Shown here in pieces: positions 16,038-29,646 of a DNA stretch of 64,000 bases. Position 1 is the first letter of the stretch. Each line of letters begins with the position of its first letter. Below the pieces are notes generated by a model. The model saw nothing but the letters and a program-made list of their open reading frames with translations, did not search any database and was not told the DNA's origin. The translations under genes were made by a program, and so were the position numbers. Location of the stretch: the NCBI RefSeq assembly GCF_022095675.1, contig NZ_JAHYSG010000061.1, positions 10,201 through 74,200 on the forward strand. Reading direction: 5' to 3'. The DNA is from Dactylosporangium sp. AC04546. Its GTDB lineage: Bacteria > Actinomycetota > Actinomycetes > Mycobacteriales > Micromonosporaceae.

Positions 16038-16498
16038 CGGGCGCGCGCCGCGAACGCGTCGAGGGTGGCGGTCCAGGCGCCGGGCTCCTCGAACGTGCCG
16101 CGCATGGCGGCCGCGTCGGCGCCGAACGCGTCGAGGTGGCGGTGCTCCAGCCGGACGCGGGTCCGGCCGGGGCCCGCCTCGGTGAACGTCACCTCCACGG
16201 AGGTCACGAGGTCCTCGTGGTACTTCCAGTCGGCCCCGATCTGCCAGGTGAGCACAACCCGGCCGGGCGGCTCCCACGCGGCGACGAAACCGGTCGACGT
16301 CTCGGTGCCGTCCTCGTGCCGGGTGTACCACCGGCCGCCGCGGTGCGGCTCGATGACGATGCGCTCGATCGGCGCCGACCCGATGTGGTGCGCGCTCGGC
16401 CACCACGACGTCATGTCGGCGGTGAAGATCTCGAAGGCGCGCGCGGGGTCGGTGTCGACGACGACCTCGCGCCGGATGGACTCGACGGTCGGGATCAT
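16034..16498 (-). CDS. SRPBCC (AHSA1-like) protein
   Basis: This 154-aa START/Bet v1-fold protein opens with VESIRREVVVDTDPARAFEIF, followed by WWPSAHHIG, then a Gly-rich GGRWYTRHEDGTET strand and a terminal helix. Such proteins bind hydrophobic ligands in a central cavity. It is translationally coupled to the ArsR gene upstream (4-bp overlap) and the YciI gene downstream. This ArsR-SRPBCC-YciI set is a common actinobacterial operon whose effector is unknown. Confidence 0.9.
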   Translation of the reverse strand: MIPTVESIRREVVVDTDPARAFEIFTADMTSWWPSAHHIGSAPIERIVIEPHRGGRWYTRHEDGTETSTGFVAAWEPPGRVVLTWQIGADWKYHEDLVTSVEVTFTEAGPGRTRVRLEHRHLDAFGADAAAMRGTFEEPGAWTATLDAFAARAR

Positions 16499-16812
16499 GG
16501 CTGGCCGCCCTTCTCGTCACGGACTCGTTGCTCGAACGCGGCCATCGAACGGGCCCAGAAGCCGTCGAGGTGCGCCCGCAGCGCGGCGATGGCCTCGGGA
16601 TCGGCCTGGTAGAGCCGGCGGGTGCCGTGCTGCCGGTCGGTCACCAGGCCGGCCTCCTTGAGGACCTTGAGGTGCTGCGACACGGCCGGGCGGCTCACCG
16701 GCAGCACCTCGGCGAGCTCGCCGACGGCGAGTGGTCCGTCGGCGAGCCGGTCGAGGATGGCCTGCCGCGTCGGGTCCCCGAGCGCGGTCAGCATCGCGGT
16801 TACGTTCGTCAT
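16495..16812 (-). CDS. ArsR-family transcriptional repressor
   Basis: This 105-aa winged-helix protein has LTALGDPTRQAILDRLADGP and the recognition helix VSRPAVSQHLKVLKEAGLV, then the wing RQHGTRRLYQ. It lacks the metal-binding ELCVCDL motif of arsenic sensors, so it is the SRPBCC-linked subtype. It is the first gene of the three-gene operon. The start codon is two bases from a palindrome, which suggests a leaderless, self-repressed transcript. Confidence 0.9.
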   Translation of the reverse strand: MTNVTAMLTALGDPTRQAILDRLADGPLAVGELAEVLPVSRPAVSQHLKVLKEAGLVTDRQHGTRRLYQADPEAIAALRAHLDGFWARSMAAFEQRVRDEKGGQP

Positions 16813-16813
16813 G

Positions 16814-16836
16814 GCTTACCGTAAGCTACCACTTAC
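16814..16836. promoter_or_regulatory. Candidate ArsR operator
   Basis: The 13-bp dyad GCTTACCGTAAGC is followed by another CTTAC half-site, together reading as overlapping inverted GTAAG/CTTAC pairs. It begins 1 bp upstream of the ArsR start codon. Confidence 0.5.
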
Positions 16837-16856
16837 CAAGCACCGTGACCAGCCCG

Positions 16857-19199
16857 TCAGAGCTGGTAGATCGCCACCGACCCGCTGCGGAAGCGGAACT
16901 CGGCGTGGTCGGCCAGGCGCGGCGACAGGTCCGGGGCGCTCTCGTCGACCATGAGCCAGCGCACGTGGTACCGCGTCCGCAGCACCCCGATCGTCTCCGC
17001 CGACGGCAGCCTGAAGGCGACGTCGTTGTCGACCAGCTTCGACGGGTCCCAGTAGGGCACGTAGACCGCGTTCACCCCGGAGACGGCCGCGGCCTCGTGG
17101 GTCCTGGCGGTGAAGCCCCAGCCCTCGACGAGGAAGCGGCGCTCGGCGTGGGCGGCGAACCAGAAGTGCCGGTTGTCGCAGGCGCCGGGCGTGGCGTACG
17201 CGCCGCCGACGCAGTGCGCGTTCGTGGCGACCAGGTCGTCGGGCGCGGAGTGCTCGCGCAGCCAGTGGCCGGCCACCCGGGTGCCCGGGGTGACGAACGG
17301 GGTGGTCTGCACGACGCCGCGCCAGCCGCCACGCTGCGACTCGCGGGTCATGAGGTACAGGTGCTTCACCGACGTGACGAGGCAGGCGCCGGCGAGCAGG
17401 GCGACGACCAGCGTGCGCCACTCGGGCAGGCGGGTCCGCCGGACGAGCCACGCGACGGTCGCGAGGAGCAGGAGCGTCAGCAGGTACGGCCAGACCAGCG
17501 CCCAGGCGGTCAGGGCCACGCTGCCGGTGGCACCTTCCCGCGGCACCCACTGCGGGCCGAGGAGATGCACGACGCCGAGGATCAGGCCGCCGGCCGCGAC
17601 GGCGGCGAGGACCCGCAGGACCGTGGGCCGCGCCGGCAGCCCCTCCGGCGTGAGCAGGGCCAGGCCCACGGCGGCCGCGAGCGACAGGTACGGGCGGCCG
17701 GAGACCATGAACCAGCCCTCGGCGCCGCCCTCATGGCCGAACAGCAGCAGCGCGGCGACGCCGGACAGGCCGATGCCGAGCACCAGCAGGACCGGTGTCG
17801 GGTCGGCCACCCGCCCGCGGAACCGGCGCAGACCGGCGAGCCCGGGCCATACGCAGGCCCAGCAGAGCAGGGTGAGGGCCAGCACGACGAGCAGCCGCCA
17901 GAGCTGATGGTCGCCGTCCGGGCTGGCGAAGCCGGTGGTGTACGGGGCGCCGGAGATCTGCGCGAAATGCAGCGGGTCGACGGTCATGCCCTGGGAGGCG
18001 CCGCCGAACAGCACGAACTGCGCGAAGAGCATCGCGAGCAGGGTGACGCCGGCCGCCGCGAGGACGCCCGGGCGGACCCGGCGCCGGGCCGGCAGCTGGA
18101 CCGCGATCACCAGCAGCAGGCCGGCCAGCAGCATCGGCATGAAGGTGGCCTTGCCGCCGGTCACGGCGACGACGAGCAGCCCCACGAGGGCCCACCGGGC
18201 GGCGCCCGGGCGGCGCAGCGCCTCCAGCAGGGCGAGCACCAGGCCGGCGAAGAGCACCGCGCCGAACGTCTGAGTGGGGCTGGTCCACAGCTGGGCCCGC
18301 AGGGAGGAGCCGTCCTCGTAGGCGTTGGTGCCGAACGCGGAGAACCAGCCGGCGAGGGGCCAGTGGTACGGCAGGGGCGTGAGCACGAAGAACGTGATGA
18401 CGACGGCCGCGGCCGCCGCCCACCAGCGGCCGGTGAGCCGCCGGCCGAGAACGCCCACGAGCGCGGCCAGGCCGAACAGCATCGGCAGCGGGCCGAGGCG
18501 CACGAGCAGCACGTGCGGCTCGATCCCCGTCGCCCAGGACGTGGCGGCCAGCTCGGCGTAGACGAACCAGTGGTACAGCACGGGCTGGTCGGCCAGCCAC
18601 GGCGACGTCAGCGGCATGTGGTGCTTCGCCTCGCCGACCAGCGCCAGATGGAACGGCGAGTCGGCGTCGGGGCTGAGCATGCCGGGCTCGACGAGCGCGT
18701 GCGTGCGGAAGAAGCGCACGCAGCTCCAGTAGAAGAGCACCCCGGCGGTGCCGGAGACGACCGCCGACCACCACACGGGTGTGCGGTCCTCGTCGCGGTC
18801 GCTGGGCCGCCAGTACCGCCGCAGCCGCGGTACCGCCAGGAACACGCCGATCGTCCCGGCCGCCCAGGCGGGGGTGAGCAGCGGCAGCCCGGCGGCCCGG
18901 GCGGCGATGTAGACCAGCACCTCGCAGCCGTAGCCGACGGCCAGGCCGGCGGCGGCGTCCTCGACCAGCCAGCCGGAGCGGCCGCGCGCGGCCCGCCAGA
19001 GCAGCGTGCCCGGCACGACGATGCCGAGCCCGACGTACGCCGCGAAGCTCGCGGTGTCGGCGGCGGAGACCCCGTAGTACCGCAGCCCGGCCGCGACCGC
19101 GAGCGCGACGACGACGGCCGGCACCCACGCGAACGACCGCCGCCCGGAGGTCCCTCTGTCCGAAATAGCCGATTGGGACTGAACGACCGTAGATGCCAT
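16857..19199 (-). CDS. Large polytopic membrane protein, GT-C glycosyltransferase-like
   Basis: The protein is 780 aa with at least twelve hydrophobic segments over the first ~590 residues and a soluble C-terminal domain of ~190 residues. Early loops contain DADSPFHLALVGEAKHHMPL and VLYHWFVYAELAA. Acidic residues in the first loops and a C-terminal extracytoplasmic domain are typical of GT39/GT-C-type lipid-linked sugar transferases. The end has ESQRGGWRGVVQTTPFVTPG and GGAYATPGACDN. ATG 19199 is chosen because the longer frame to 19316 adds a charged, non-gene-like stretch. No neighbour gives a pathway clue. It overlaps nothing and faces a divergent gene 192 bp away. Confidence 0.7.
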   Translation of the reverse strand: MASTVVQSQSAISDRGTSGRRSFAWVPAVVVALAVAAGLRYYGVSAADTASFAAYVGLGIVVPGTLLWRAARGRSGWLVEDAAAGLAVGYGCEVLVYIAARAAGLPLLTPAWAAGTIGVFLAVPRLRRYWRPSDRDEDRTPVWWSAVVSGTAGVLFYWSCVRFFRTHALVEPGMLSPDADSPFHLALVGEAKHHMPLTSPWLADQPVLYHWFVYAELAATSWATGIEPHVLLVRLGPLPMLFGLAALVGVLGRRLTGRWWAAAAAVVITFFVLTPLPYHWPLAGWFSAFGTNAYEDGSSLRAQLWTSPTQTFGAVLFAGLVLALLEALRRPGAARWALVGLLVVAVTGGKATFMPMLLAGLLLVIAVQLPARRRVRPGVLAAAGVTLLAMLFAQFVLFGGASQGMTVDPLHFAQISGAPYTTGFASPDGDHQLWRLLVVLALTLLCWACVWPGLAGLRRFRGRVADPTPVLLVLGIGLSGVAALLLFGHEGGAEGWFMVSGRPYLSLAAAVGLALLTPEGLPARPTVLRVLAAVAAGGLILGVVHLLGPQWVPREGATGSVALTAWALVWPYLLTLLLLATVAWLVRRTRLPEWRTLVVALLAGACLVTSVKHLYLMTRESQRGGWRGVVQTTPFVTPGTRVAGHWLREHSAPDDLVATNAHCVGGAYATPGACDNRHFWFAAHAERRFLVEGWGFTARTHEAAAVSGVNAVYVPYWDPSKLVDNDVAFRLPSAETIGVLRTRYHVRWLMVDESAPDLSPRLADHAEFRFRSGSVAIYQL

Positions 19200-19391
19200 A
19201 CAATCCGCCGTTTCATGTGGTGATGGGGGCAACCTATGCAACGCCGGAGCGACACGTGCGCCCGCGCCGTTTCTCCACCCCGAACGAGACCCCGAACGAG
19301 TGAGACGGACGGTCACGTCGACCCGGCCGATCGGGCGGACTTGTGATCATCACATGGCGCTGCGTGACGGCGACCCGGCACGATCGGGCGC

Positions 19392-20756
19392 GTGAGCACC
19401 GATCCGTGGCCCGCGGCGAGCCCGGCCGAGCGCATCGGGCGGTCGCGGGCGCTCATGCGCGCGTGCGCCGGCGCCGTCGCCGCGTGGTTCGCCGAGCGGG
19501 CCGGGCAGCGGGAGTTCGCGGTCTTCGAGGCGCACTTCGCCGTCCTGCGCACGGTGCTCGACGAACTGCTGAGCGCCGTCGAGGGCCGGCTCGACGGGCT
19601 CGGGCCGGCGGGCGTCCCCGTCGACGTCCACGCGGCCTGCCGGGACCTCGACGCCCGCGTCGAGATCGTCCGCCGGCTCTTCGGGTGGTACCGCGAGAAG
19701 TACGACCAACGGGCCGACCCGGTCCTGGGCCCGACGATCCGGGCGGCCGACGCGATCGTGCGCAGCTGCTGGACGGCGCCGTTCATGATCGCCGAGGTGC
19801 CCCGGCCGGCCGGCCCGCTCACCTGGCTCGACCACCGCTACGACGCCGCGGCCCGGCTGCGCACCGCCGTCCCCGGCGAGCTGCGCGCGCTCGCCGAGGA
19901 GCTGCCGATCCCGGTCGTGGTGCTGCCGGCGGTCAGCGTCGTCGAGCCGTGGTGGCTGGCGCTGGCGGCCCACGAGACGGGGCACCACGTGCTGCACGAG
20001 CTCGACCCGGGGCTGCCCGCGGCGGCCCGGTCCGCGGTCGCGTTCGGGACCGCGGCGTTCGAGACCGCGGGCGCCTGGCCGGACTGGGCCGAGGAGTCGT
20101 TCTGCGACGCGTTCGCGGTGCTGTGCGTCGGACCGGCGGCGGTGCGGGCCGTCGCCGAGCTGGAGTACGGGCCGCCCGCCGACCTGGTCCGGTTCCCCGG
20201 CGACGCCGACCGGTACCCGCCGCCGGCCGTGCGGCTCGCCCTGCACGGGGAGCTGGCCCGGGCCGTGGGCCTGGACCCGCCCGGGCCCGGCGCCGCCGAG
20301 GTCGCGGCCTGGCTCGACACGCTGCCGCCGGGTGCCGTGGCACCCCTCGCCGTCGACGAGGTCCGGGCCCACCTGGACCTGGTGCCGGCGGTCGCGGCCG
20401 CGCTGCTCGGACTGCGGGTCAACGGCTGCGACCTGCCGGAGCTGTGCGGCTTCCGGCCGGAGCGGTTCGCGCCCGGCGGCGAGGTCGACGAGTGGCTGGC
20501 CCAGCTGCCCCGCACCGACCCCGTCGTGCTGTCCCGGCAGTCGCAGACCGCCGCCCGCAGCGCGATCGCCGCCGCGGCGGCGCGGCCGCTCGATCCCGGC
20601 GCCGCGCGGAACCTGCTGACCCTGCTCGACGGCAGCGGGCCGCCCGGCACGCTCGCCGGCCCGGTCCGCCGGGACGTCGACCCACGCCCGGTCGTCGACC
20701 GGCTGTTCGGTCTCGACCTGACACTCGACCTGACAGGAGAAGCGCATGGCGCCTGA
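19392..20756 (+). CDS. HETGH zincin-type putative metallopeptidase
   Basis: This 454-aa soluble protein has a zinc-peptidase helix AAHETGHHVLHEL, with HETGH at residues 194-198, and a second helix WAEESFCDAFAV at about 232-243. E235 is the likely third zinc ligand and D239 a stabilising residue, the gluzincin arrangement. No signal peptide is present, so it would act in the cytoplasm. The remaining helical regions are unfamiliar. Its last 11 bp overlap the start of the 344-aa gene, so the pair is co-translated. That partner is paralogous to the tail of the large NTPase encoded opposite, which ties the peptidase to the CHAT/NTPase operon. The family is not recognised beyond the active site. 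Confidence 0.7.
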   Translation: MSTDPWPAASPAERIGRSRALMRACAGAVAAWFAERAGQREFAVFEAHFAVLRTVLDELLSAVEGRLDGLGPAGVPVDVHAACRDLDARVEIVRRLFGWYREKYDQRADPVLGPTIRAADAIVRSCWTAPFMIAEVPRPAGPLTWLDHRYDAAARLRTAVPGELRALAEELPIPVVVLPAVSVVEPWWLALAAHETGHHVLHELDPGLPAAARSAVAFGTAAFETAGAWPDWAEESFCDAFAVLCVGPAAVRAVAELEYGPPADLVRFPGDADRYPPPAVRLALHGELARAVGLDPPGPGAAEVAAWLDTLPPGAVAPLAVDEVRAHLDLVPAVAAALLGLRVNGCDLPELCGFRPERFAPGGEVDEWLAQLPRTDPVVLSRQSQTAARSAIAAAAARPLDPGAARNLLTLLDGSGPPGTLAGPVRRDVDPRPVVDRLFGLDLTLDLTGEAHGA

Positions 20757-21780
20757 GTTCGCCCGCCGGATGTGGTCCATGGTCCGCGACTGGTTCGCGA
20801 AGGAGGCGAGCCACGTCACCGTGGCCTTCCTGCCCGACGAGGGCGCCGCGCCGGTCGCGCCCGGCCAGGGGTACCTGCGGCTGTGGGTGTCGGAGGGGTT
20901 CCTGGCCCAGGAGCGCAGCTGGGGCAACGAGCACTTCCCGGTCCTGCACGGCGGTGCGGCGCTGCGCTTCCTCGGCGGCGAGGCCACGTTCACCACGTTC
21001 GAGCGGCCGCCGGACGCGTGGAAGGTCCCGGGCGCGCAGCTCGACTTTCCCATCACGCCGCTGCTGCCGTTCGGCGGCGGGACGGTCGAGGTCGAGGCCG
21101 CGCTGTACCAGGCGACCGTCGGCGGTCCGATCAGCACCGCCGTCGACCTGCTCGGCGGGGTCGCCAAGCTCATCGGCCCGCCCCTCGCGACCGCGGCGAC
21201 GATCGCCGACAAGGTCTCCGACGGGCTGGCGGCCGTGCTCAAGGCGACCGGCGACCAGCCGGTCCTCGGCCTGCACTACGCGATGGTGTCCGACGGCGGG
21301 ACCGGCACGCCGGTCCGCTCCGGCCACGTCGCCGTCATCGACCACCGCGGCGACCAGCTGGCGGGCCCGCCGGTGATCGCCGGCGGCCGGCTGCGCCTGG
21401 CCACGCCGGGCGGCGAGGTCCAGCCGACCGGCGTCGACTACCTCGTCGTCCGCGTCGAGTGCCGCACCGAGCGCGACGACTGGCGCTTCCCGGAGCTCGA
21501 CGAGCTGGTCCGCCAGGCCGGCGCCGCGATCGCCCGCGGCAAGAAGGACGTCTTCGCCGACCTGCGCGGCGAGATCCTGGCCACGGTCTACACCTCGGCG
21601 GACCTGGTGCCCGCCGACCGGCTCCGGGTCGCCGTGCTGCTCAAGGACGAGCTGGACAGGATGGCCGAGCTCGGCGTCGTCGCCGCCGGGGAGTTCTCCC
21701 TCGCCGGCGCGGCCGGCCGCCTCCCGTCCCGCGACGACGAGCGCCTGCGCGGCCTCACCCTCGCGAAGCTGCTCGCCTAG
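20746..21780 (+). CDS. Stand-alone copy of the NTPase C-terminal module
   Basis: This 344-aa protein has no assigned family. It is clearly paralogous to the last ~300 residues of the opposing 1,820-aa NTPase. Shared blocks in the same order are a VxFLPD start, YLRLW versus YVRLW, PLLPFGGGTVEVEAAL versus PLLPYGGGAVEIEAAL, PVRSGH, ECRTERDDWRFPELDEL versus ECRAERDDWLFPELDDL, and DLVPADRLRVA versus DLVPVDRRRVA. It starts at ATG 20746, with AGGAGA five bases upstream, and overlaps the zincin gene. The stop TAG is part of the CTAG target duplication of the adjoining MITE-like element. It may act as substrate, adaptor or decoy for the NTPase system. Confidence 0.75.
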   Translation: MAPEFARRMWSMVRDWFAKEASHVTVAFLPDEGAAPVAPGQGYLRLWVSEGFLAQERSWGNEHFPVLHGGAALRFLGGEATFTTFERPPDAWKVPGAQLDFPITPLLPFGGGTVEVEAALYQATVGGPISTAVDLLGGVAKLIGPPLATAATIADKVSDGLAAVLKATGDQPVLGLHYAMVSDGGTGTPVRSGHVAVIDHRGDQLAGPPVIAGGRLRLATPGGEVQPTGVDYLVVRVECRTERDDWRFPELDELVRQAGAAIARGKKDVFADLRGEILATVYTSADLVPADRLRVAVLLKDELDRMAELGVVAAGEFSLAGAAGRLPSRDDERLRGLTLAKLLA

Positions 21781-21992
21781 GCCCTGTCCTGCCGATCATG
21801 TCGAGCCGAGACGGAGTCCAGATTTCGTCTGGCGTCGCCCCGCGGAAGTCCGGCTACCGGTGTTGTAACCGGGCTTTCGCGGGGCGGCGTCAGCGCCATG
21901 GGCGGGCCGGCCGGGCGCAGCTGCGCCGGGCCGGCCTTGGCGAGGAATCTGGGCCCGTCGCAGGCCGGCATGATCGGCAGGACAGGGCCTAG
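21777..21992. mobile_element. MITE-like element with 20-bp perfect TIRs and CTAG duplication
   Basis: A 208-bp element (21781-21988) has perfect 20-bp terminal inverted repeats, GCCCTGTCCTGCCGATCATG at 21781-21800 and its complement at 21969-21988, flanked by direct CTAG repeats at 21777-21780 and 21989-21992. A 4-bp YTAR duplication fits the IS5 group of the IS5 family. It encodes no transposase. The inside is strongly folded: CGCCCCGCGGAAGTCCGG can pair with CCGGGCTTTCGCGGGGCG, and a near-perfect 32-bp palindrome centres on GCAGCTGC. Each CTAG supplies the stop codon of the flanking gene, one on each strand. The folded core may now terminate both transcripts. Confidence 0.85.
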
Positions 21993-24900
21993 CCCTCGAT
22001 GAGCCGCTCGAAGGTGTTGCGCGGCAGGCGGTCGTCGGTGCGCTCGGGCAGCTCACCGGACAGCTCCAGCCCGTCGCGCAGCGCCTCGAGCCGGTCGCGG
22101 ACGAGCGTCGCGACCCGGCGCCGGTCCACCGGCACCAGGTCCGGCGACCCGTACGCCGTCGCGATGGCCTCGGCCCGCAGCCGCTGGAAGTCCTCGTGCC
22201 GGCCCTGCAGGTACGCCTCGGTGGCCCGCCGGGTGAGATCGTCGAGCTCCGGGAACAGCCAGTCGTCCCGCTCGGCCCGGCACTCCAGCCGCAGCACGAG
22301 GTGTTCGAGGTCGCCGGCCGGCCGCGTGCCCACGTGCAGCGTACCGTCCACAATGGACGGCAGCCCCGGCAGCGACCCGCGGGCCACGACGAGGTGGCCC
22401 GACCGCACGGGCATGCCGCCCGCCAGGGCGTACCGCACGGCCAGCATGGGGTCCTCGTCCGCCGCGTCGAGGACGGCACCGAAGCCGGCGGCGATCCGCC
22501 CGGCGACCGTGGCCGCGACCGTGAGCGGCGGCGCGACCAGACCGGCGACCTCGGCCAGCGCCGTGCAGGCCGCGTCGACCGGGCCGCCCGGCGGCCCCGC
22601 GAACAGCGCGGCCTCGATCTCCACCGCGCCGCCGCCGTACGGCAGCAGCGGCGTGAGCGGCATCCCCAGCCGGTCGCCGGGCCGGCCGACGGCCGCGAAC
22701 ATCGTCCGGTCCCCGGCGAAGCCCAGCGCGACACCGCCGTACGCCACGTGCCGGCCGCGGCCCGAGCGCAGGCTCCCGCCGGCCAGCCACAGGCGGACGT
22801 AGCCGAGCTCGGGGCGGACCGGTTCGGACCCGGGGTCGGGCAGGAACACGACGTCGAGCCGCTCGGACTCCCGGTCGCACCACCGCCGGACCCGCGCCGA
22901 CGCCCCGCCGCCCGCAGTCGTTGCCCGCGGCACCGCGACCGGCGGACTGAGGGGCCGGCCGGCGAGCATGAGCACCACGTCGTCGGCCGCCCGCCCGGGC
23001 CGGCCGGCCAGCCGGCGCAGCTCGCGCACCAGCGGCAGCAGCTCGGCCGGTCCCCGCGGGCTGGTCAGCGACTCCTCGGCCGCACGGTCGACCAGCCGGA
23101 CCGCCTCGGCGGCGGCGTCGTCGGGCAGCGGCGGGACGACGAGCACCGCGGCCGCCCCGCCCGCGAGCAGCTCCCGCGCGAGCTCGAACGTCGGCACCCG
23201 CAGCTCGCCGAGCGGCTCGGCCGCGCGGTCCGCCGGCTCCGCCTGGAGGACCACCAGCGCGGTGTCGCGCACGTCGAGGTCGTCGACGCCGACGAAGTAC
23301 TCCCCCTCGGTGAGCCCGCGGCTGGTGTAGCCGCTGTCGTGCCCGTCCCCGGCGCGGATCCGCATCCGGGCGCCGCCCTTGGTCAGCGCTGGCTCGCCGA
23401 CGAGGTGCAGCACGGTCCGCGCGCGGCCCGGGCCGGTGGGCTGCCGCGGGTCGAGCGGCCCCTGTCGCTCGACGCGCAGCGGCCGGCCGGCGGCCGGCCA
23501 GTCGACGACCAGGTCGGCGGCCTGGTCGGCGGCCTGGATCCGCACCGCGACGGTCCCGGGCCCACCTTCCGCGTAGGCGAAGTGCTCCCACTCGAAGTGC
23601 TCCGCGACATCGGGCAGGAGCACCACCATGACCGACGGTCCGGGCGGGGTCGCCCGTGCGTCGGCGAGCAGGACCAGCCGCTCCCGACCGGCGGTGAGCC
23701 GGGCGACCCGCCGGCCGTCGCCGGCCAGCACCGGGACCCCGTCGGCCACCGTGCGCTCCCCCGTGCGCGGGCCGGCGTCGAGCGGGGGCCCGTCGTCCTC
23801 GGGCCGCAGGGGGCTGAGGTCGAGCTCGGGGATGTCGCCGGGCGGCGGGGTGCCGAACGCCGCCTTGTTGCGGGCGTCCAGCAGCTCGTGCCATCGCCGG
23901 TTGAGCGCGTCGGGCGGAAAATCGATGTGCAGGTTCTCCTGCGGCGGCGGCCCGCCGGCCCGGATCTCGGCCAGCTCGCGCAGCAGCCGGGCCCGGTCGG
24001 CGCCGAGCCGGTCGCCGGCGGCCCGGTACCGCGTCTCGGCCCGCCGCAGCAGCTCGGCGCCGAGGTCGGCGTCGCGCAGGGCCAGCAGCTCCCCCTCGGC
24101 GAGCAGCGCTTGCGCGTACCACCGCGGCGGCAGCGCGGCGAGTGCGTCCGCGGGGAAGATCCGGGGGCGTACCAGCTCGACGCGGACCACGGCCAGCAGC
24201 GCCGTGCCCGTCCGGTCGGCGGTGAGCACGGCCGGGATCTCCCCCCGGCGCAGCGCGTCGATCCACGCCGGCAGCGGGCCGTCGACCTCCGGCGCGGTGC
24301 TCTCGTCGTCGACCGGCATGGCCCGGTCCGCGAACTGGGCCGCGTCGTGGGCCGGGCCGTCCTGCGACCGGGACGCCGGCAGGCCCGTCAGCCGCCCGCC
24401 GAGCTGCCAGTGGACGTGGGCGGTGCCCGCCTCGGCCGGGTCGCGGGGCCTCTCACCGGTGGCGAGGAACAGCGCGGGCCAGGCCGCGGCGCGAACCTGC
24501 GGGTCCGGGTCCTTCGCCAGCCGGTGCAGGGAGGTGCTCGGCCGGGTCGTGCGGGCCAGGCGGCACACGGCGGCGAGGGTGACGTCGCAGGCCTGGACGG
24601 TGTCCGGCTCCTGGCCGCGGGCGATCGCCTCCTCGCGCCAGCGCTGCACGAGCTCGGTGGCGAGGGTCCAGCGGCCGGTGACGAGGAGCAGGCGGACGTG
24701 GGCGACGAAGTACGGCGGGGTCTGCGCGTGCCAGACCGATGTGGGCCGCAGGCCGGCGACGCGCTCCGGTGGGAACCGCACCTCGCGGTCGGGCCGCTCC
24801 GGCAGCGTCCAGTCCAGCTCGTAGTCGAGCTGTGCGGCGGCGAGGCGCTCCGCGTCGAGGTCGGCGACGTCCGGCACGCCCGCGAGCCGGACCTCGTCCG

Positions 24901-27451
24901 GGACGTCGGCCGGGGGCTCGGCGGTGGCCACGGCGAGGCGGAGGCGGGCCAGGCGGGCCCGGTACAGCGGGTTCGCGATCCCGGGCCAGTCCAGGTCGAC
25001 GACGGGTGTGTTGCCGGCGGACGCCGCCAGGGCCGTGGTGAGCTCGTCCCGCGCCACCGCGAACCGCTCGTGCCGCATCGCGATCGCCGCCCGGGTGAGG
25101 GCGATCGCGGCACGCAGGCCGCCCCGCGCGGCGCGCTCGCGGACGTGCAGCTCGGCCGCGAACGGCTCGGCGTCGGCGCCGGCGAGGAGCAGGGCCTCGG
25201 CCGCGGCGATCAGCGAGCCGACCGGGGCGGCCTGGAACACCATGCCGTTCGACCGTGCCCGGTCCAGGTCCGGCAGGGCGGGGAGGCTCCGGTGCGGGTC
25301 GGCGACGATCTCGCCGCACACCGCGCGGGCGCGCAGCCGGGCCCGGTCGGGCACGGCCGGGTGCCGGTCGGCCAGGCGCCACACGTCGTGCCACAGCTCG
25401 CGGGCGGCGGCGGGGCCGGCGACCCGCAGCGTCGTCGCGGCCTGGGTCGCCCGGACCGCGGCCAGGATCGTGGGCCCCGCGGGGCGTTCCAGCTCGGCGG
25501 CCGCGGCGCGGGGCATCACCTGCGCGGCCCAGCCCCACGCGTGCTCCGCGAGGAGGGTCTCGTCGACGCGGTCCCAGAACGCGGCGGCGTCCCCGACGGG
25601 CAGCAGGCGCAGGGCCGCCTCGACCGCCTCGGCCGGGGCCTCGTCCAGGTCGCCGGCGAAGCAGCGGTCGGCGGCGTCGCGGCCCAGGCGGTACAGCTCG
25701 GTCTCCGGCAGTCGCGGGAGCGCGGCCCGCAGGCGGGGCGCGAGGTTGGGGTCGACCTCGACCACTCGGGCGCGGCCGGCCTCGTCGAACCTGCGGGTGT
25801 GGACCCACTCGTGGGCGGCGAGGTCGGCGAACGTGCGCTGCGGGTCGAGCCGGCGGCGGCGCAGGGCCGGCTCGATCATGCCGAGGTCGAAGCGGCCCAG
25901 GGCCAGCGCCGCCGGCAGGGCCTCGACGACGGCGGGCTCGCCGACGCGCCCCAGGATGCGCTGCTCGACGTACGGGTCGCCGGCCGACGCGCGCAGCCGG
26001 CCGGCGGTGAGCGCCGGGTCGTCGACGGCCCACTGGGCGTACGCGCTGAGCTGGAACGGGTTCCAGGTGCCATCGGGGTCGGCGCAGCGCTCCAGGATGG
26101 CCGCGCGCACGTCGGTGGCGATGCGCCCGCCGGGGTCGCGCCGGATGAGGAACTCGGCGGCCTCGGCCCGGCTGAACCCGCCCAGCTCGACCGGGCGCAG
26201 GCCGTCGCCGAAGGCCGGGGGGACCCGCTCGTGGCCGGGCGGCCCGAGCCAGCGCCGGCCGGCGAGCACCACCCGCAGGCCGGGGAACCACTCGTGCAGG
26301 AAGGTGAGCATGTCGACGGTGCGGGCCACGGCGGGGGCCATCGCGCCGGGGGCGTGCGCCTTGACCAGCTCCTCGCAGGTGTCGAGAACGAGCACGACGC
26401 ATTGGCCGAGGTCGGCGAGGTACACGGCGAAGGCGGTGAGCGTGCGCTCCAGGGCCGCGCCGAGCGCCGGGTCGTCGAGGCTGCCCTGGGTCAGCTCGTG
26501 CAGCGCGAACGCGGCGTCGTCGAAGTGCCGGCGGCGGCGCCGTTCGCCGCGGGTGCCGGTGTAGCCGGTCAGGTCGTCGGCCAGCGCGAGCAGCAGGTCG
26601 GCCGGGCGGGTGAACGGGTACCGCGGGTCGAGGTGGTCGAAGTCGACCCGCGCGAACACGGTCGGCGGCAGGCCGTGGCGCTCGGCGAAGCCGGCCGAGG
26701 CGAGGTGCCGCAGCAGCATCGTCTTGCCGACCCCGCCGTCGCCGCGGATGTGCAGCGCCCAGTGGCCGGCGCCGGCGATGAGGTCGGCGAGGGCCTGCTC
26801 CGGGTCGGTGCGCGGCTGGTAGTGGCGCAGCGCGGCGGCGTCGGCGGCCTGGCGGTAGGCCCGCCCGAGGCGCCACTGGGCGCGGCGGGCGCTCGCGGCG
26901 AGCGGGTCGCCGACCACCTCGCCGAGGCACTCGGCCGCGGCGACGAGGCGGGTCGCGTCGACCGCGCGGTCGCCGTCGAGCAGCCCGTCGACCGCGTCGA
27001 GGAGCGGGCCGCCGGTCGGGTCGAGGTACGGCAGGTCGAGCATCTCGCGCAGCGCGCCGACGGCCGGCGGCAGCGGGTCCGGCCGGTGCAGGGCCGCGCG
27101 CAGGTCGTCGAGGGTGGTGCCGAACCCGGTCCCGCGCAGGTAGGCGCCGACCTCGCCGCGGCGCGACGCCGGCAGCCAGAACGCGAGCCCGATCCGCCCG
27201 TCCGGCTCCAGGGCCGGCCGGGACTGGGCGATCCCGGCCGTTTCGAGGGCCGCGACGAGCGCCGGCACGCCGGGGTGGTCGCCGGCCGGGAAGCCGAGCC
27301 GGGTGGCCAGCTCGACGCTCCACTCGGGCAGCGCGGCGAGCCAGGTGAGCGTGGCGGTTTCGAACCGGGCCAGCCCGGCCCGTGCCGACTCCGCCTGATC
27401 GGCCCGCAGGGCCGCCAGCGCCTCGGCGACGGTCGCGTCCGGGAGGGTCAT
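21989..27451 (-). CDS. Giant STAND-like P-loop NTPase with degenerate CHAT-like region and duplicated C-terminal module
   Basis: The protein is 1,820 aa. Residues 1-130 are a helical N-terminal region. A P-loop NTPase follows at about 220-480, with Walker A GDGGVGKT at 237-244 and Walker B VLVLDTCEE (D357), resembling NACHT/STAND ATPases. A long alpha-helical, TPR-like sensor region covers about 560-1150. At about 1230-1500 the pattern matches a CHAT protease, ending in TALVVLQAEPADRA and ELARELLAGGAAAVLVVPPL, but the catalytic Ser-Ala-Cys is replaced by Gln-Ala-Glu. The last ~300 residues are paralogous to the 344-aa protein encoded opposite. ATG 27451 overlaps the CHAT gene stop (ATGA), so CHAT and NTPase are one operon. 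STAND proteins usually oligomerise on ligand binding and activate an effector, here plausibly the CHAT protease. Confidence 0.8.
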   Translation of the reverse strand: MTLPDATVAEALAALRADQAESARAGLARFETATLTWLAALPEWSVELATRLGFPAGDHPGVPALVAALETAGIAQSRPALEPDGRIGLAFWLPASRRGEVGAYLRGTGFGTTLDDLRAALHRPDPLPPAVGALREMLDLPYLDPTGGPLLDAVDGLLDGDRAVDATRLVAAAECLGEVVGDPLAASARRAQWRLGRAYRQAADAAALRHYQPRTDPEQALADLIAGAGHWALHIRGDGGVGKTMLLRHLASAGFAERHGLPPTVFARVDFDHLDPRYPFTRPADLLLALADDLTGYTGTRGERRRRRHFDDAAFALHELTQGSLDDPALGAALERTLTAFAVYLADLGQCVVLVLDTCEELVKAHAPGAMAPAVARTVDMLTFLHEWFPGLRVVLAGRRWLGPPGHERVPPAFGDGLRPVELGGFSRAEAAEFLIRRDPGGRIATDVRAAILERCADPDGTWNPFQLSAYAQWAVDDPALTAGRLRASAGDPYVEQRILGRVGEPAVVEALPAALALGRFDLGMIEPALRRRRLDPQRTFADLAAHEWVHTRRFDEAGRARVVEVDPNLAPRLRAALPRLPETELYRLGRDAADRCFAGDLDEAPAEAVEAALRLLPVGDAAAFWDRVDETLLAEHAWGWAAQVMPRAAAAELERPAGPTILAAVRATQAATTLRVAGPAAARELWHDVWRLADRHPAVPDRARLRARAVCGEIVADPHRSLPALPDLDRARSNGMVFQAAPVGSLIAAAEALLLAGADAEPFAAELHVRERAARGGLRAAIALTRAAIAMRHERFAVARDELTTALAASAGNTPVVDLDWPGIANPLYRARLARLRLAVATAEPPADVPDEVRLAGVPDVADLDAERLAAAQLDYELDWTLPERPDREVRFPPERVAGLRPTSVWHAQTPPYFVAHVRLLLVTGRWTLATELVQRWREEAIARGQEPDTVQACDVTLAAVCRLARTTRPSTSLHRLAKDPDPQVRAAAWPALFLATGERPRDPAEAGTAHVHWQLGGRLTGLPASRSQDGPAHDAAQFADRAMPVDDESTAPEVDGPLPAWIDALRRGEIPAVLTADRTGTALLAVVRVELVRPRIFPADALAALPPRWYAQALLAEGELLALRDADLGAELLRRAETRYRAAGDRLGADRARLLRELAEIRAGGPPPQENLHIDFPPDALNRRWHELLDARNKAAFGTPPPGDIPELDLSPLRPEDDGPPLDAGPRTGERTVADGVPVLAGDGRRVARLTAGRERLVLLADARATPPGPSVMVVLLPDVAEHFEWEHFAYAEGGPGTVAVRIQAADQAADLVVDWPAAGRPLRVERQGPLDPRQPTGPGRARTVLHLVGEPALTKGGARMRIRAGDGHDSGYTSRGLTEGEYFVGVDDLDVRDTALVVLQAEPADRAAEPLGELRVPTFELARELLAGGAAAVLVVPPLPDDAAAEAVRLVDRAAEESLTSPRGPAELLPLVRELRRLAGRPGRAADDVVLMLAGRPLSPPVAVPRATTAGGGASARVRRWCDRESERLDVVFLPDPGSEPVRPELGYVRLWLAGGSLRSGRGRHVAYGGVALGFAGDRTMFAAVGRPGDRLGMPLTPLLPYGGGAVEIEAALFAGPPGGPVDAACTALAEVAGLVAPPLTVAATVAGRIAAGFGAVLDAADEDPMLAVRYALAGGMPVRSGHLVVARGSLPGLPSIVDGTLHVGTRPAGDLEHLVLRLECRAERDDWLFPELDDLTRRATEAYLQGRHEDFQRLRAEAIATAYGSPDLVPVDRRRVATLVRDRLEALRDGLELSGELPERTDDRLPRNTFERLIEG

Positions 27452-29646
27452 ACCGTCGCTCCGGGATGCAGTTGGGTGTAGGCGTGCCACGCGGCCTCGT
27501 CGTTGTCCGGCTCGAACACGGTGGGGATGCGCGCGGCGACCACGTGCACCGCGTTGTCGGGCTTGCCGGGGCGGCTGCCGACGAAGTCCAGCGCCATCTC
27601 GTAGCCGTTGAGCTGGCCGTCCCGGACCGTGTAGATCCGGGTGCGGGGGTCGCCGTCCGGCGCGCTGCGGTCCGGGTGCAGCAGCACCCACTGGTAGCCG
27701 ACCAGCATGTCGTCGCGGCCCAGCTCGCCCAGCTGCTGGATCCGCCGCTCGACCGCGGCGGTCTCGGCGAAGGTGTGCAGGCGGCTGCCGGCGTCCTCGG
27801 TGCGCGACCCGGTGAGGATCACCGGGATCGGCCGGTGCGGGCTGCCGAGGCCGAACGAGTCCACCATCTCCAGCAGCAGCCCGAGCCCGGTGTGGGCGTC
27901 CGGCGTCGCCCAGCGGTGGGCGTCGTCGCACAGCAGCACGGCCCGGGTGTGCCGGCCGAACGGCGCGCCCCAGCGGGCGGCGGCCTCGTCGCAGAGCCGG
28001 TCGAGGTCGGCGCCGAGCGCGGTCCGCAGGATCGGCGCCGGCACCGGGCCGGCGCCGTCGTCGAGCTCGTAGATCGCCTGGCCCACCGCGAGCAGGCGGT
28101 CGGCCCGCGCTTCGGCGCCGAGGTCGGGCTGCGGGTGCCGGGCGACCTGGAACATCCGCAGCGGGAACGGGTCCAGGCCCAGCTTGTCCACGAGCAGGTG
28201 GACCTGCTCCAGGACCGCCTTGACCAGCGCCCGGGCGGTCTGCGGGCCGGGCGCCGCGCCGTTGCCGGCGATGAACAGCGGCAGGTGGCCGTCGCGCAGG
28301 ATCCGCCAGCCGATCTCGCGCAGCAGGCGGGTGCCGCCCAGGCTGCGGATCCGGTCCTTGGCCAGGACGGCCAGGACGCCGGCGGCGCCTTCGACGACCT
28401 CGTCGGCGGTCTTCAGGATCGGCCCGCGCCCGACGTGCAGCGGGTCGCCGGGGAGTTTCAGCGACCTCGCCAGGCCGACGAGCCGCCGGACCACCGCCTC
28501 GTCGACCATGCGCGCGGCCGGGTCGAGCTGCTCGGCGAGGTACAGCGCGGGGAGTGCCCAGTCGAGGGCCTCCGGGTCCTTGCGCAGCAGCGCGGCCCGG
28601 CGGCCGTGGGCGGAGGCCGCGACGAACGACGCGCCGCAGTGCACGGCGTGGATGAGGCGGCGGGTGTACAGGCGGCACGCCGGCTCGCTGATCTCACCGC
28701 TCATGGCGGACACGATCGGGACGCCCGCGGCGACGAGCTGCGCGGCGAGCGGGCCGACGTCGGTCGGGTCGTCGGAGCCGGCGCCGGCCGACTCCCCGGC
28801 GGACGCCGTGTTGCAGGCGGAGAGCATGACGGCCAGGGGCGGCCGGCCGGCCGCGAGGGCCTGGAACAGCTGCTCGGCGTCGCAGGGTTCCAGGCCGCCG
28901 CCGAGCAGCAGCTCGCCGCGGCCGTCGGGCGCGATCCGGCCGTGGGCGACGAGGTGGACGACGTCGGGATGGTGGCGGGCGCAGGCCTCGCGCAGCTTGT
29001 CGATCGTGACGCCGTGCTCGGTCCGGGCCCGGCAGACGCCGTCGACGTCGAGCTGCTGCAGCAGGCCCATGTACATCGCGCCGGGGCGGATGGTCGGGTC
29101 GGCCAGCGCCATGCCGGTGGCGAACAGCGCGACCGGGATGCCGGCGACCGGGCCGGCCTTCGTCGCCGGCGACGGGACCAGCCGGGTGATCGCGACCGTG
29201 CGCTCGGTCAGGCCGGCGAGGGGCCGCTCCTCGGTGCGCATCGACTCCCACACGAGGCGGTGCAGGTCGGCCTCCGGCACCGGCCAGCGCAGCGCCAGCT
29301 CGGCGTCGTCGTCACCGATCGCGGCCCAGACGGGCCGGAGCAGGCACTCGAACAGCCAGCGGCCGTACGCGACGACGTCGGCGGGGGTCGACTGGCGGGT
29401 CCGCAGCCGGCGCAGCACGCCGGCGGCCGCCTCGGCGTCGCCGGCGCACAGGCCGTCGAGCAGCGCGTCGCCGGTCGGGGTTCGCCGGTCGGCCGGCACC
29501 ATGGGCAGCCGCCGGCCGGCGGCGGTGAAGACCTCCATGGTGTGGCCGGCGCCGAGCGGTGTCCCGGCCCCCGCATCGCCGGCGGTGCGGGCGGTCACCG
29601 CCCAGTCCGGGCCGGAGGGGCTGACCTCGACGATGATGCGCCGCAT
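27448..29646 (-). CDS. CHAT-domain (caspase-like) protease with degenerate AAA region
   Basis: The protein is 732 aa. The CHAT protease domain lies at about residues 150-400, with the catalytic His in DVVHLVAHG (H235) and Cys in VMLSACNTA (C278), both intact. The N-terminal ~120 residues (MRRIIVEVSPSG) are an accessory domain. The C-terminal ~300 residues look like an AAA/STAND ATPase with Walker B-like AVLLCDDAHRW and sensor-like IPVILTGSR, but the expected P-loop reads FIAGNGAAPGPQTA, which lacks GKT and is probably inactive. ATG 29646 starts just before the first strand; the longer frame to 29907 is not gene-like. CHAT proteases (separase/caspase clan) act as effectors in bacterial abortive-infection systems. 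It is translationally coupled to the NTPase. Confidence 0.82.
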   Translation of the reverse strand: MRRIIVEVSPSGPDWAVTARTAGDAGAGTPLGAGHTMEVFTAAGRRLPMVPADRRTPTGDALLDGLCAGDAEAAAGVLRRLRTRQSTPADVVAYGRWLFECLLRPVWAAIGDDDAELALRWPVPEADLHRLVWESMRTEERPLAGLTERTVAITRLVPSPATKAGPVAGIPVALFATGMALADPTIRPGAMYMGLLQQLDVDGVCRARTEHGVTIDKLREACARHHPDVVHLVAHGRIAPDGRGELLLGGGLEPCDAEQLFQALAAGRPPLAVMLSACNTASAGESAGAGSDDPTDVGPLAAQLVAAGVPIVSAMSGEISEPACRLYTRRLIHAVHCGASFVAASAHGRRAALLRKDPEALDWALPALYLAEQLDPAARMVDEAVVRRLVGLARSLKLPGDPLHVGRGPILKTADEVVEGAAGVLAVLAKDRIRSLGGTRLLREIGWRILRDGHLPLFIAGNGAAPGPQTARALVKAVLEQVHLLVDKLGLDPFPLRMFQVARHPQPDLGAEARADRLLAVGQAIYELDDGAGPVPAPILRTALGADLDRLCDEAAARWGAPFGRHTRAVLLCDDAHRWATPDAHTGLGLLLEMVDSFGLGSPHRPIPVILTGSRTEDAGSRLHTFAETAAVERRIQQLGELGRDDMLVGYQWVLLHPDRSAPDGDPRTRIYTVRDGQLNGYEMALDFVGSRPGKPDNAVHVVAARIPTVFEPDNDEAAWHAYTQLHPGATV

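What the first reader, a model, noticed from the sequence alone, without database searches (positions are those of the whole stretch)
19392..29646. Candidate proteolytic conflict system: zincin + module protein facing a CHAT/NTPase operon
Four genes form two coupled pairs that point at each other: an HETGH zincin with a 344-aa protein, and a CHAT protease with a 1,820-aa P-loop NTPase. The NTPase tail is paralogous to the 344-aa protein, so the two arms belong together. CHAT proteases and STAND NTPases are known in bacterial immunity. A zincin plus a free copy of the NTPase tail is not an arrangement I know.
Basis: partly seen in the sequence, partly recalled or inferred. Interest (0 to 1): 0.85.

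Follow-up and report, generated by a model that had tools for sequence, protein, structure and literature searches.

The report
Four-gene two-protease bacterial immunity-type operon
Two predicted proteases, a large ATP-using sensor protein and a protein of unknown type form a conserved four-gene unit in soil actinobacteria; it looks like a cell-suicide or virus-defence system in which the unknown protein sits where a related operon carries a membrane-pore protein.

Summary
In detail: zincin (19392-20756 +), p344 (20746-21780 +), STAND-like NTPase (21989-27451 -), CHAT protease (27448-29646 -); the NTPase tail is 43% identical to p344. The grouping is real: 8 of 12 named p344 loci hold all four genes; 2 are cut by contig ends, 1 is decayed, 1 is an orphan p344. 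Five distant sister operons keep CHAT>NTPase>zincin; the next gene varies: gasdermin, subtilase, trypsin. In 3 of 4 p344-like plasmid cases from other phyla the neighbour is a papain-type, caspase or CHAT gene. Best reading: an NTPase-gated protease system whose p344 is the protease-released effector, gasdermin-like in role but not in sequence. The assembly is shown; the mechanism is inferred. The zincin model (pLDDT 90) has no convincing PDB match.

The parts
19392..20756 (+). zincin-like metallopeptidase, 454 aa; H194-E195-TG-H198 and E235xxxD239 (gluzincin-type spacing)
   Evidence: AlphaFold pLDDT 90.1; no Pfam/NCBIfam family at E<=1
20746..21780 (+). p344: conserved protein of unknown family; predicted C2-like beta sandwich (res ~40-243) with a helical hairpin insert (128-168) and C-terminal helices
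21989..27451 (-). STAND-like NTPase, 1820 aa: N-terminal region 1-225, P-loop NTPase ~227-400 (K243; LVLDTCEEL-like stretch at 353), long middle region, fused p344-like tail 1519-1818
21998..22897 (-). p344-like tail (NTPase residues 1519-1818), a fusion not seen in any other protein found
27448..29646 (-). CHAT protease, 732 aa: CHAT domain 93-365 (H236, C278) plus C-terminal degenerate P-loop NTPase-like region (GGT instead of GKT, by eye)
21777..21992 (.). MITE-like element (38-nt terminal inverted repeats) between the two convergent stop codons; probably a passenger

Best explanation
The four genes are one NTPase-gated, protease-executed conflict system (abortive-infection or regulated-cell-death type). 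SHOWN: conserved four-gene linkage, overlapping genes, conserved catalytic motifs of CHAT and zincin, conserved P-loop of the NTPase, a CHAT>NTPase>zincin core kept in five distant sister operons with a changing next gene, and p344 relatives beside proteases of different families. INFERRED: the NTPase senses an invader or damage cue and, on ATP binding and assembly, activates the CHAT protease; CHAT (alone or with the zincin) cleaves p344 and releases an effector that probably acts at the membrane, in the way caspase-like proteases release bacterial gasdermins. The zincin is most simply a second cutter in the cascade. In the window one p344 copy became tethered to the NTPase, which could hold substrate or effector at the sensor.
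For: Linkage: all four genes in 8 of 12 named p344 loci and in unnamed G038, G122 and G430; in L013 and L016 all three junctions overlap by 4 nt with the starts I chose, each a valid start codon. Protein distances correlate across 11 loci (r 0.96-0.98; 0.74-0.87 in 7 representatives without G430; shared species history contributes). Motifs. Sister core CHAT>NTPase>zincin in L045, L048, L049, L102, L103; next gene gasdermin (L048), S8-type subtilase (L049, by eye), trypsin (L045). Gasdermins: 3 of 397 genomes, 3 of 3 in a CHAT+NTPase gene row. p344 relatives beside papain C1 (Sporomusa), caspase (Pseudanabaena, annotation), CHAT (Rhizobium, annotation). C2-like core, a membrane-binding fold in known cases (borderline). 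Precedent of protease-released effectors: PMC9079055 (whole text), PMC9612521 (passages), PMC12799240 (outline and abstract).
Against: No gasdermin homology of p344 (hhalign probability 0.2). The p344 model is only pLDDT 68 and Foldseek finds nothing at E<=0.001. 1 of 4 plasmid-borne p344 relatives (Prosthecochloris) has no recognisable protease as its neighbour, and there was no random-gene control for protease adjacency. Actinokineospora bangkokensis has p344 but no zincin match in its genome, and no CHAT/NTPase match in the 21 kb held. L102 and L103 have the CHAT>NTPase>zincin core and no p344 match in the 18-20 kb held. PADLOC has no convincing model for any of the four. No trigger, cleavage or toxicity was tested. 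Fusion of p344 to the NTPase fits an adaptor role as well.
Confidence: 0.5

Rival explanations
1. p344 is an adaptor or regulatory module of the NTPase (scaffold or membrane anchor), and the executioners are the two proteases acting on host or phage proteins.
For: p344 is fused to the NTPase C-terminus in the window and its gene overlaps the NTPase stop in relatives such as L013 and L016; the C2-like core suits membrane recruitment; in L102 and L103 the CHAT>NTPase>zincin core exists with no p344 match in the stretch held.
Against: The stretches around the p344 relatives of Sporomusa, Prosthecochloris and Rhizobium show no BLAST match (E<=0.001) to this NTPase, and that of Pseudanabaena only a match of one NTPase (L013) to a beta-propeller gene; in L048 the gene after the zincin is a gasdermin.
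Confidence: 0.3
2. A regulated-proteolysis or developmental cell-death module (for example of the mycelium), not an anti-phage system.
For: The named actinobacterial holders are mycelial genera (recalled biology); two loci of this kind lie beside contractile-injection genes (L014 with the four genes, L077 with a gasdermin), and such systems in Streptomyces are linked to cell death (recalled). Rarity (7 of 296 class genomes) does not by itself show defence.
Against: Scattered distribution and decayed copies (L020; the short zincin remnant of L046) look more like a conflict gene set than a core developmental pathway.
Confidence: 0.15
3. One reading: zincin+p344 is a separate counter-unit (toxin/antidote or inhibitor pair) that opposes the CHAT/NTPase arm.
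For: In the window the two pairs are separate convergent units.
Against: In L010, L013, L014, L016, L017 and G430 all four genes run in one direction, and in the five Frankia-type loci the zincin is on the CHAT side.
Confidence: 0.04

Closest known systems
Bacterial gasdermin operons (caspase-like/CHAT protease, often with NLR/NACHT-type genes, plus bGSDM; e.g. Lysobacter, Runella)
   Same: Caspase-superfamily protease and large NTPase with a partner protein of a few hundred residues; sister operon L048 has CHAT>NTPase>zincin>gasdermin; a review describes bGSDM operons with CHAT/C14, trypsin, NLR/NACHT and Peptidase U49 genes (PMC9612521 passages)
   Different: p344 has no detectable gasdermin homology and the zincin is not a Pfam-recognised peptidase
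MoxR-vWA ternary conflict systems (VMAP, iSTAND) of Kaur et al. 2020
   Same: Multi-gene NTP-dependent systems of multicellular bacteria with exchangeable caspase, trypsin and rare metallopeptidase domains (PMC7159879 passages); a p344 relative lies in a MoxR + SAV_2336-related + caspase locus (annotation)
   Different: No MoxR or vWA gene among 19 window neighbours scanned; STAND-like NTPase instead
Protease-activated pro-effector pairs (nuclease-trypsin in Hachiman/AVAST; caspase-nuclease)
   Same: A protease adjacent to its candidate pro-effector, exchanged between unrelated systems (PMC12799240 outline and abstract)
   Different: p344 matches no Pfam family, so no nuclease domain was recognised
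Craspase (type III-E CRISPR gRAMP with TPR-CHAT)
   Same: CHAT protease switched on by a partner (PMC9729208, search listing and start of abstract)
   Different: No CRISPR component noticed; this CHAT is followed by a degenerate P-loop-like region and Pfam shows no TPRs

Membership tests
CHAT peptidase (PF12770) | Pfam domain above curated cut-off and His/Cys catalytic pair | tested here: met
   56 bits against 24; H236 and C278 kept in 14 of 14 sequences aligned
STAND NTPase (NACHT/AP-ATPase class) | P-loop NTPase of STAND type | tested here: inconclusive
   Walker A GK(T/S) in 15 of 15, LVLDTCEEL-like stretch; AAA_16 and NACHT hits below their cut-offs
Gluzincin metallopeptidases | HExxH plus downstream ExxxD | tested here: met
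   H194-H198 and E235/D239 invariant in 32 of 32 and 12 of 12 divergent sequences
Gluzincin metallopeptidases | Known peptidase fold | tested here: inconclusive
Peptidase U49 (Lit-like) of gasdermin operons | Match to the Pfam family (PF10463, number recalled) | tested here: not met
   12 zincins scanned against Pfam-A to E 10: no U49 among the families listed
Bacterial gasdermin system | Gasdermin protein | tested here: not met
   No NF051890 match in own genome; p344 profile against three gasdermins probability 0.2
Bacterial gasdermin system | Adjacent caspase-superfamily protease | tested here: met
   CHAT gene in the unit
MoxR-vWA ternary conflict systems | MoxR ATPase and vWA protein in the locus | tested here: not met
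   19 window neighbours scanned with Pfam at E<=0.001, none
Known anti-phage systems in PADLOC-DB 2.0.0 | Model match for the component proteins | tested here: not met
   No match better than E 0.009 for the four proteins
C2 domain | C2 beta-sandwich fold in p344 | tested here: inconclusive
Any conflict system | Protection against phage or induced cell death | not testable with these tools
   needs experiment

The most novel reading that the evidence does not exclude
p344 founds a new family of protease-released executioner proteins, analogous to but unrelated to gasdermins. Its relatives are spread over at least five phyla (Actinomycetota, Bacillota, Cyanobacteriota, Chlorobiota, Pseudomonadota) and are mostly paired with proteases of different families (CHAT, papain, caspase). 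The window's zincin belongs to a second, structurally unmatched metallopeptidase family that is a constant partner of a CHAT/STAND-like NTPase core. Together they would be bacterial inflammasome-like systems with two proteases in series and a non-gasdermin membrane effector.
Probability: 0.3. Interest if true: 0.92.

Novelty: new variant of a known kind. Interest (0 to 1): 0.7.

Why it matters
If true, it adds a candidate protease-paired effector family (p344), unrecognised by Pfam, and an unclassified HExxH family to the bacterial counterparts of inflammasomes. It gives a compact set of natural operons with one CHAT>NTPase>zincin core and a last gene that is p344, gasdermin or another protease, so that 'what do the proteases cut?' can be tested directly. 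It also shows a sensor NTPase that has captured its presumed substrate or partner by gene fusion.

Tried and rejected
p344 as a gasdermin: rejected at sequence level; the structural test is open (gasdermin is not among the Foldseek/VIA rows shown, which excludes nothing). Zincin as Lit/U49 or as an NCBIfam family: no match. The window's second CHAT gene (39756-42386) as a paralogous copy: rejected, only weak CHAT-core similarity (E 0.005), and the ORF beside it is unrelated to the NTPase. p344 on phages or, with relatives, on viral contigs: none. Zincin on plasmids: none. Zincin in a phylum-wide sample: 3 of 296 genomes, the own one and 2 marginal (E 5e-6 and 9e-6). PDB sequence matches for the four: none significant. 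The third zincin branch (HE(V/I)SH in the 5 of 5 aligned; L047, L050-L057, L099-L101, L104-L108) showed no NTPase match and was not followed. My G+C-based gene caller missed the CHAT genes of L045 and L103, and I first took both loci for CHAT-less; a direct tblastn corrected this. 42 pooled neighbours of the loci matched 11 PADLOC families at E<=1e-8 (mad2, mad3, IetA and others); with no control and no placing of hits I draw nothing from it.

Literature: searches listed no paper that I recognised as describing this four-gene set; 'CHAT domain' with 'zincin' gave 0 papers. The library lacks most subscription journals. The original gasdermin paper (Johnson 2022) was not read, only a commentary (whole) and passages of a review.
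Full report
WHAT IS THERE. The window (G000, contig C61:10201-74200 of a 13.0 Mb assembly with 11.5% estimated contamination; window 74% G+C) holds two convergent gene pairs. Plus strand: a 454-aa HETGH zincin and a 344-aa protein (p344), overlapping by 11 nt, with AGGAG before the p344 ATG. Minus strand: a CHAT protein (732 aa) and an NTPase (1820 aa) sharing ATGA. The NTPase's last 300 residues are 43% identical to p344 (E 3e-70). CHAT scores 56 bits against a cut-off of 24; the NTPase has only sub-threshold AAA_16/NACHT hits; zincin and p344 match nothing in Pfam or NCBIfam at E<=1. PADLOC shows nothing convincing for any of the four (best E 0.009).

THE FOUR GENES BELONG TOGETHER. A pattern-based scan of the 84,980-species genome collection with the p344 alignment gave 12 loci. 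Searching them with the four window proteins, 8 of 12 contain all four: L010 Actinokineospora enzanensis; L012, L015 and L018 Frankia; L013 Microbispora; L014 and L017 Amycolatopsis; L016 Streptosporangium. L011 and L019 end at contig edges inside the NTPase. L020 Herbidospora holds broken remnants of zincin and p344. L009 A. bangkokensis has an orphan p344 and no zincin match in its genome; CHAT and NTPase were looked for there only in the 21 kb held. A zincin match is present in 11 of the 12 p344 genomes, one of them the decayed Herbidospora copy. In the unnamed class sample 7 of 296 genomes have p344, the own genome included; the other 6 are of one genus, which I take for Frankia because several of its loci give the same match values as named Frankia loci. 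In addition, 12 of the 44 zincin proteins listed (the window's included) have the same longest-contig length as a listed p344 protein, which suggests but does not prove linkage.

ORDER AND COUPLING. L010, L013, L014, L016, L017 and G430 run zincin>CHAT>NTPase>p344 on one strand; in L013 and L016 all three junctions overlap by 4 nt with the starts I chose, each a valid start codon. In the five Frankia-type loci (L012, L015, L018, L058, L059) p344 converges on zincin>CHAT>NTPase. The window alone has the zincin on the p344 side. Pairwise distances of the four proteins over 11 loci correlate at 0.96-0.98, and at 0.74-0.87 for 7 representatives without G430; common species descent contributes to this.

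THE TAIL IS THE DERIVED PART. In the 11 other four-gene loci p344 is a separate gene. The ends of the 10 close NTPases printed share, by eye, a DVLLFL-like stretch that the window has (DDVVLML) just before its linker and tail; the distant G430 protein does not show it. A search with the tail in proteins of NTPase size found only the window's own protein (8000 best candidates scored from 5.8 billion). In a 43-row tree the tail is a long branch (1.81) in a group with the window's free p344 and its nearest relatives (support 80/87, not strong). So p344 was probably duplicated in this lineage; one copy was fused to the NTPase and diverged quickly, losing the segment around W59-H68 whose key residues are invariant in the 30 free copies aligned. 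Between the two convergent stop codons lies a MITE-like element (21777-21992, 38-nt inverted repeats; 43 matches in the genome, some being both strands of one copy; one other near-complete copy at 97%). It is probably a later passenger: in the five convergent Frankia-type loci the stops are 4-121 nt apart, too close for such an element.

SISTER OPERONS SWAP THE LAST GENE. Zincins about 26-28% identical to the window's (L045, L048, L049) and two found with a wider profile (L102, L103) lie behind a related large NTPase, and all five have a CHAT gene before it on the same strand: L048 and L102 by Pfam, L049 by BLAST, L045 and L103 by tblastn (E 2e-40 and 1e-44). After the zincin come a gasdermin in L048 (NF051890, 122 bits against cut-off 100; a Met-Cys start is visible inside the ORF), an S8-type subtilase in L049 (by eye) and a trypsin in L045; nothing comparable was seen after the zincin of L102 and L103, and none of L045, L102 and L103 has a p344 match. 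So CHAT>NTPase>zincin is the constant core of this branch (5 of 5) and the last gene varies. A third zincin branch has no such NTPase. Gasdermins are rare in the order (3 of 397 genomes), and all three lie in a CHAT+NTPase gene row (L078 by BLAST and a visible P-loop), two of them with no zincin seen.

p344 HAS RELATIVES IN OTHER PHYLA, MOSTLY BESIDE PROTEASES. Plasmid records gave four: Sporomusa (hhalign 99.1) directly after a papain-family peptidase (Pfam); Pseudanabaena (99.1) directly before a gene annotated as caspase, in a row with MoxR and SAV_2336-related genes; Rhizobium (97.4) directly after a gene annotated as CHAT, with an S8 peptidase gene next downstream; and Prosthecochloris (tblastn E 4e-31), whose next gene is not a recognisable protease. 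My own CHAT references do not reach the Rhizobium gene at E 0.001, so that label rests on the record. 3 of 4 is suggestive but has no random-gene control. The p344 profile shows no relation to the three gasdermins (probability 0.2).

MECHANISM. The simplest reading is sensor NTPase -> CHAT (and zincin) -> cleavage of p344 -> damage, most likely to the membrane, as for gasdermins (PMC9612521 passages, PMC9079055 whole text). Every arrow is inference. The fusion of p344 to the NTPase equally fits an adaptor. One four-gene locus, L014, lies beside contractile-injection (eCIS) sheath genes. Pooled neighbours of the loci also include DUF5682, AAA_5, VWA_CoxE and gyrase matches, which I did not place locus by locus.

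VERDICT. A real, conserved, apparently undescribed four-gene system of the NTPase-plus-protease immunity kind.

Noticed in passing
window 21777-21992: MITE-like 216-bp element with 38-nt inverted repeats, folding into a long hairpin (z -14), between the two convergent stop codons; 43 matches in the genome, some being both strands of one copy.
   Followed up: partly
   Followed up: yes
L077 7853-14098 (-) and 16952-18502 (+): Alpha/beta hydrolase, CHAT-SIR2, nSTAND1 and gasdermin genes about 3 kb from a contractile-injection sheath gene.
   Followed up: partly
L014 18172-19689: A four-gene p344 locus of Amycolatopsis lies beside an eCIS-type sheath gene (34% identical to that of L077).
   Followed up: partly
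L123 5009-12190: Pseudanabaena plasmid: p344-like gene in a row with MoxR, SAV_2336-related and caspase genes; a beta-propeller gene at 16127-18325 resembles part of the L013 NTPase (29%, E 1e-29).
   Followed up: partly
L124 7929-9176: Prosthecochloris conjugative plasmid: p344-like gene without a recognisable protease neighbour.
   Followed up: partly
L047, L050-L057, L099-L101, L104-L108: A third branch of the zincin superfamily (HE(V/I)SH in the 5 aligned) in other settings, several with recurring unknown partner genes.
   Followed up: no
window 39756-42386 (-): A second, TPR-CHAT gene, hardly related beyond the CHAT core; the genome has 15 CHAT matches in all.
   Followed up: partly
L020 9113-10595: Decayed zincin and p344 remnants in Herbidospora.
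   Followed up: no
window 16857-19316 (-): An 819-aa protein with no Pfam match at E<=0.001, divergently placed 75 bp from the zincin start; no match to it in the relatives' loci.
   Followed up: no
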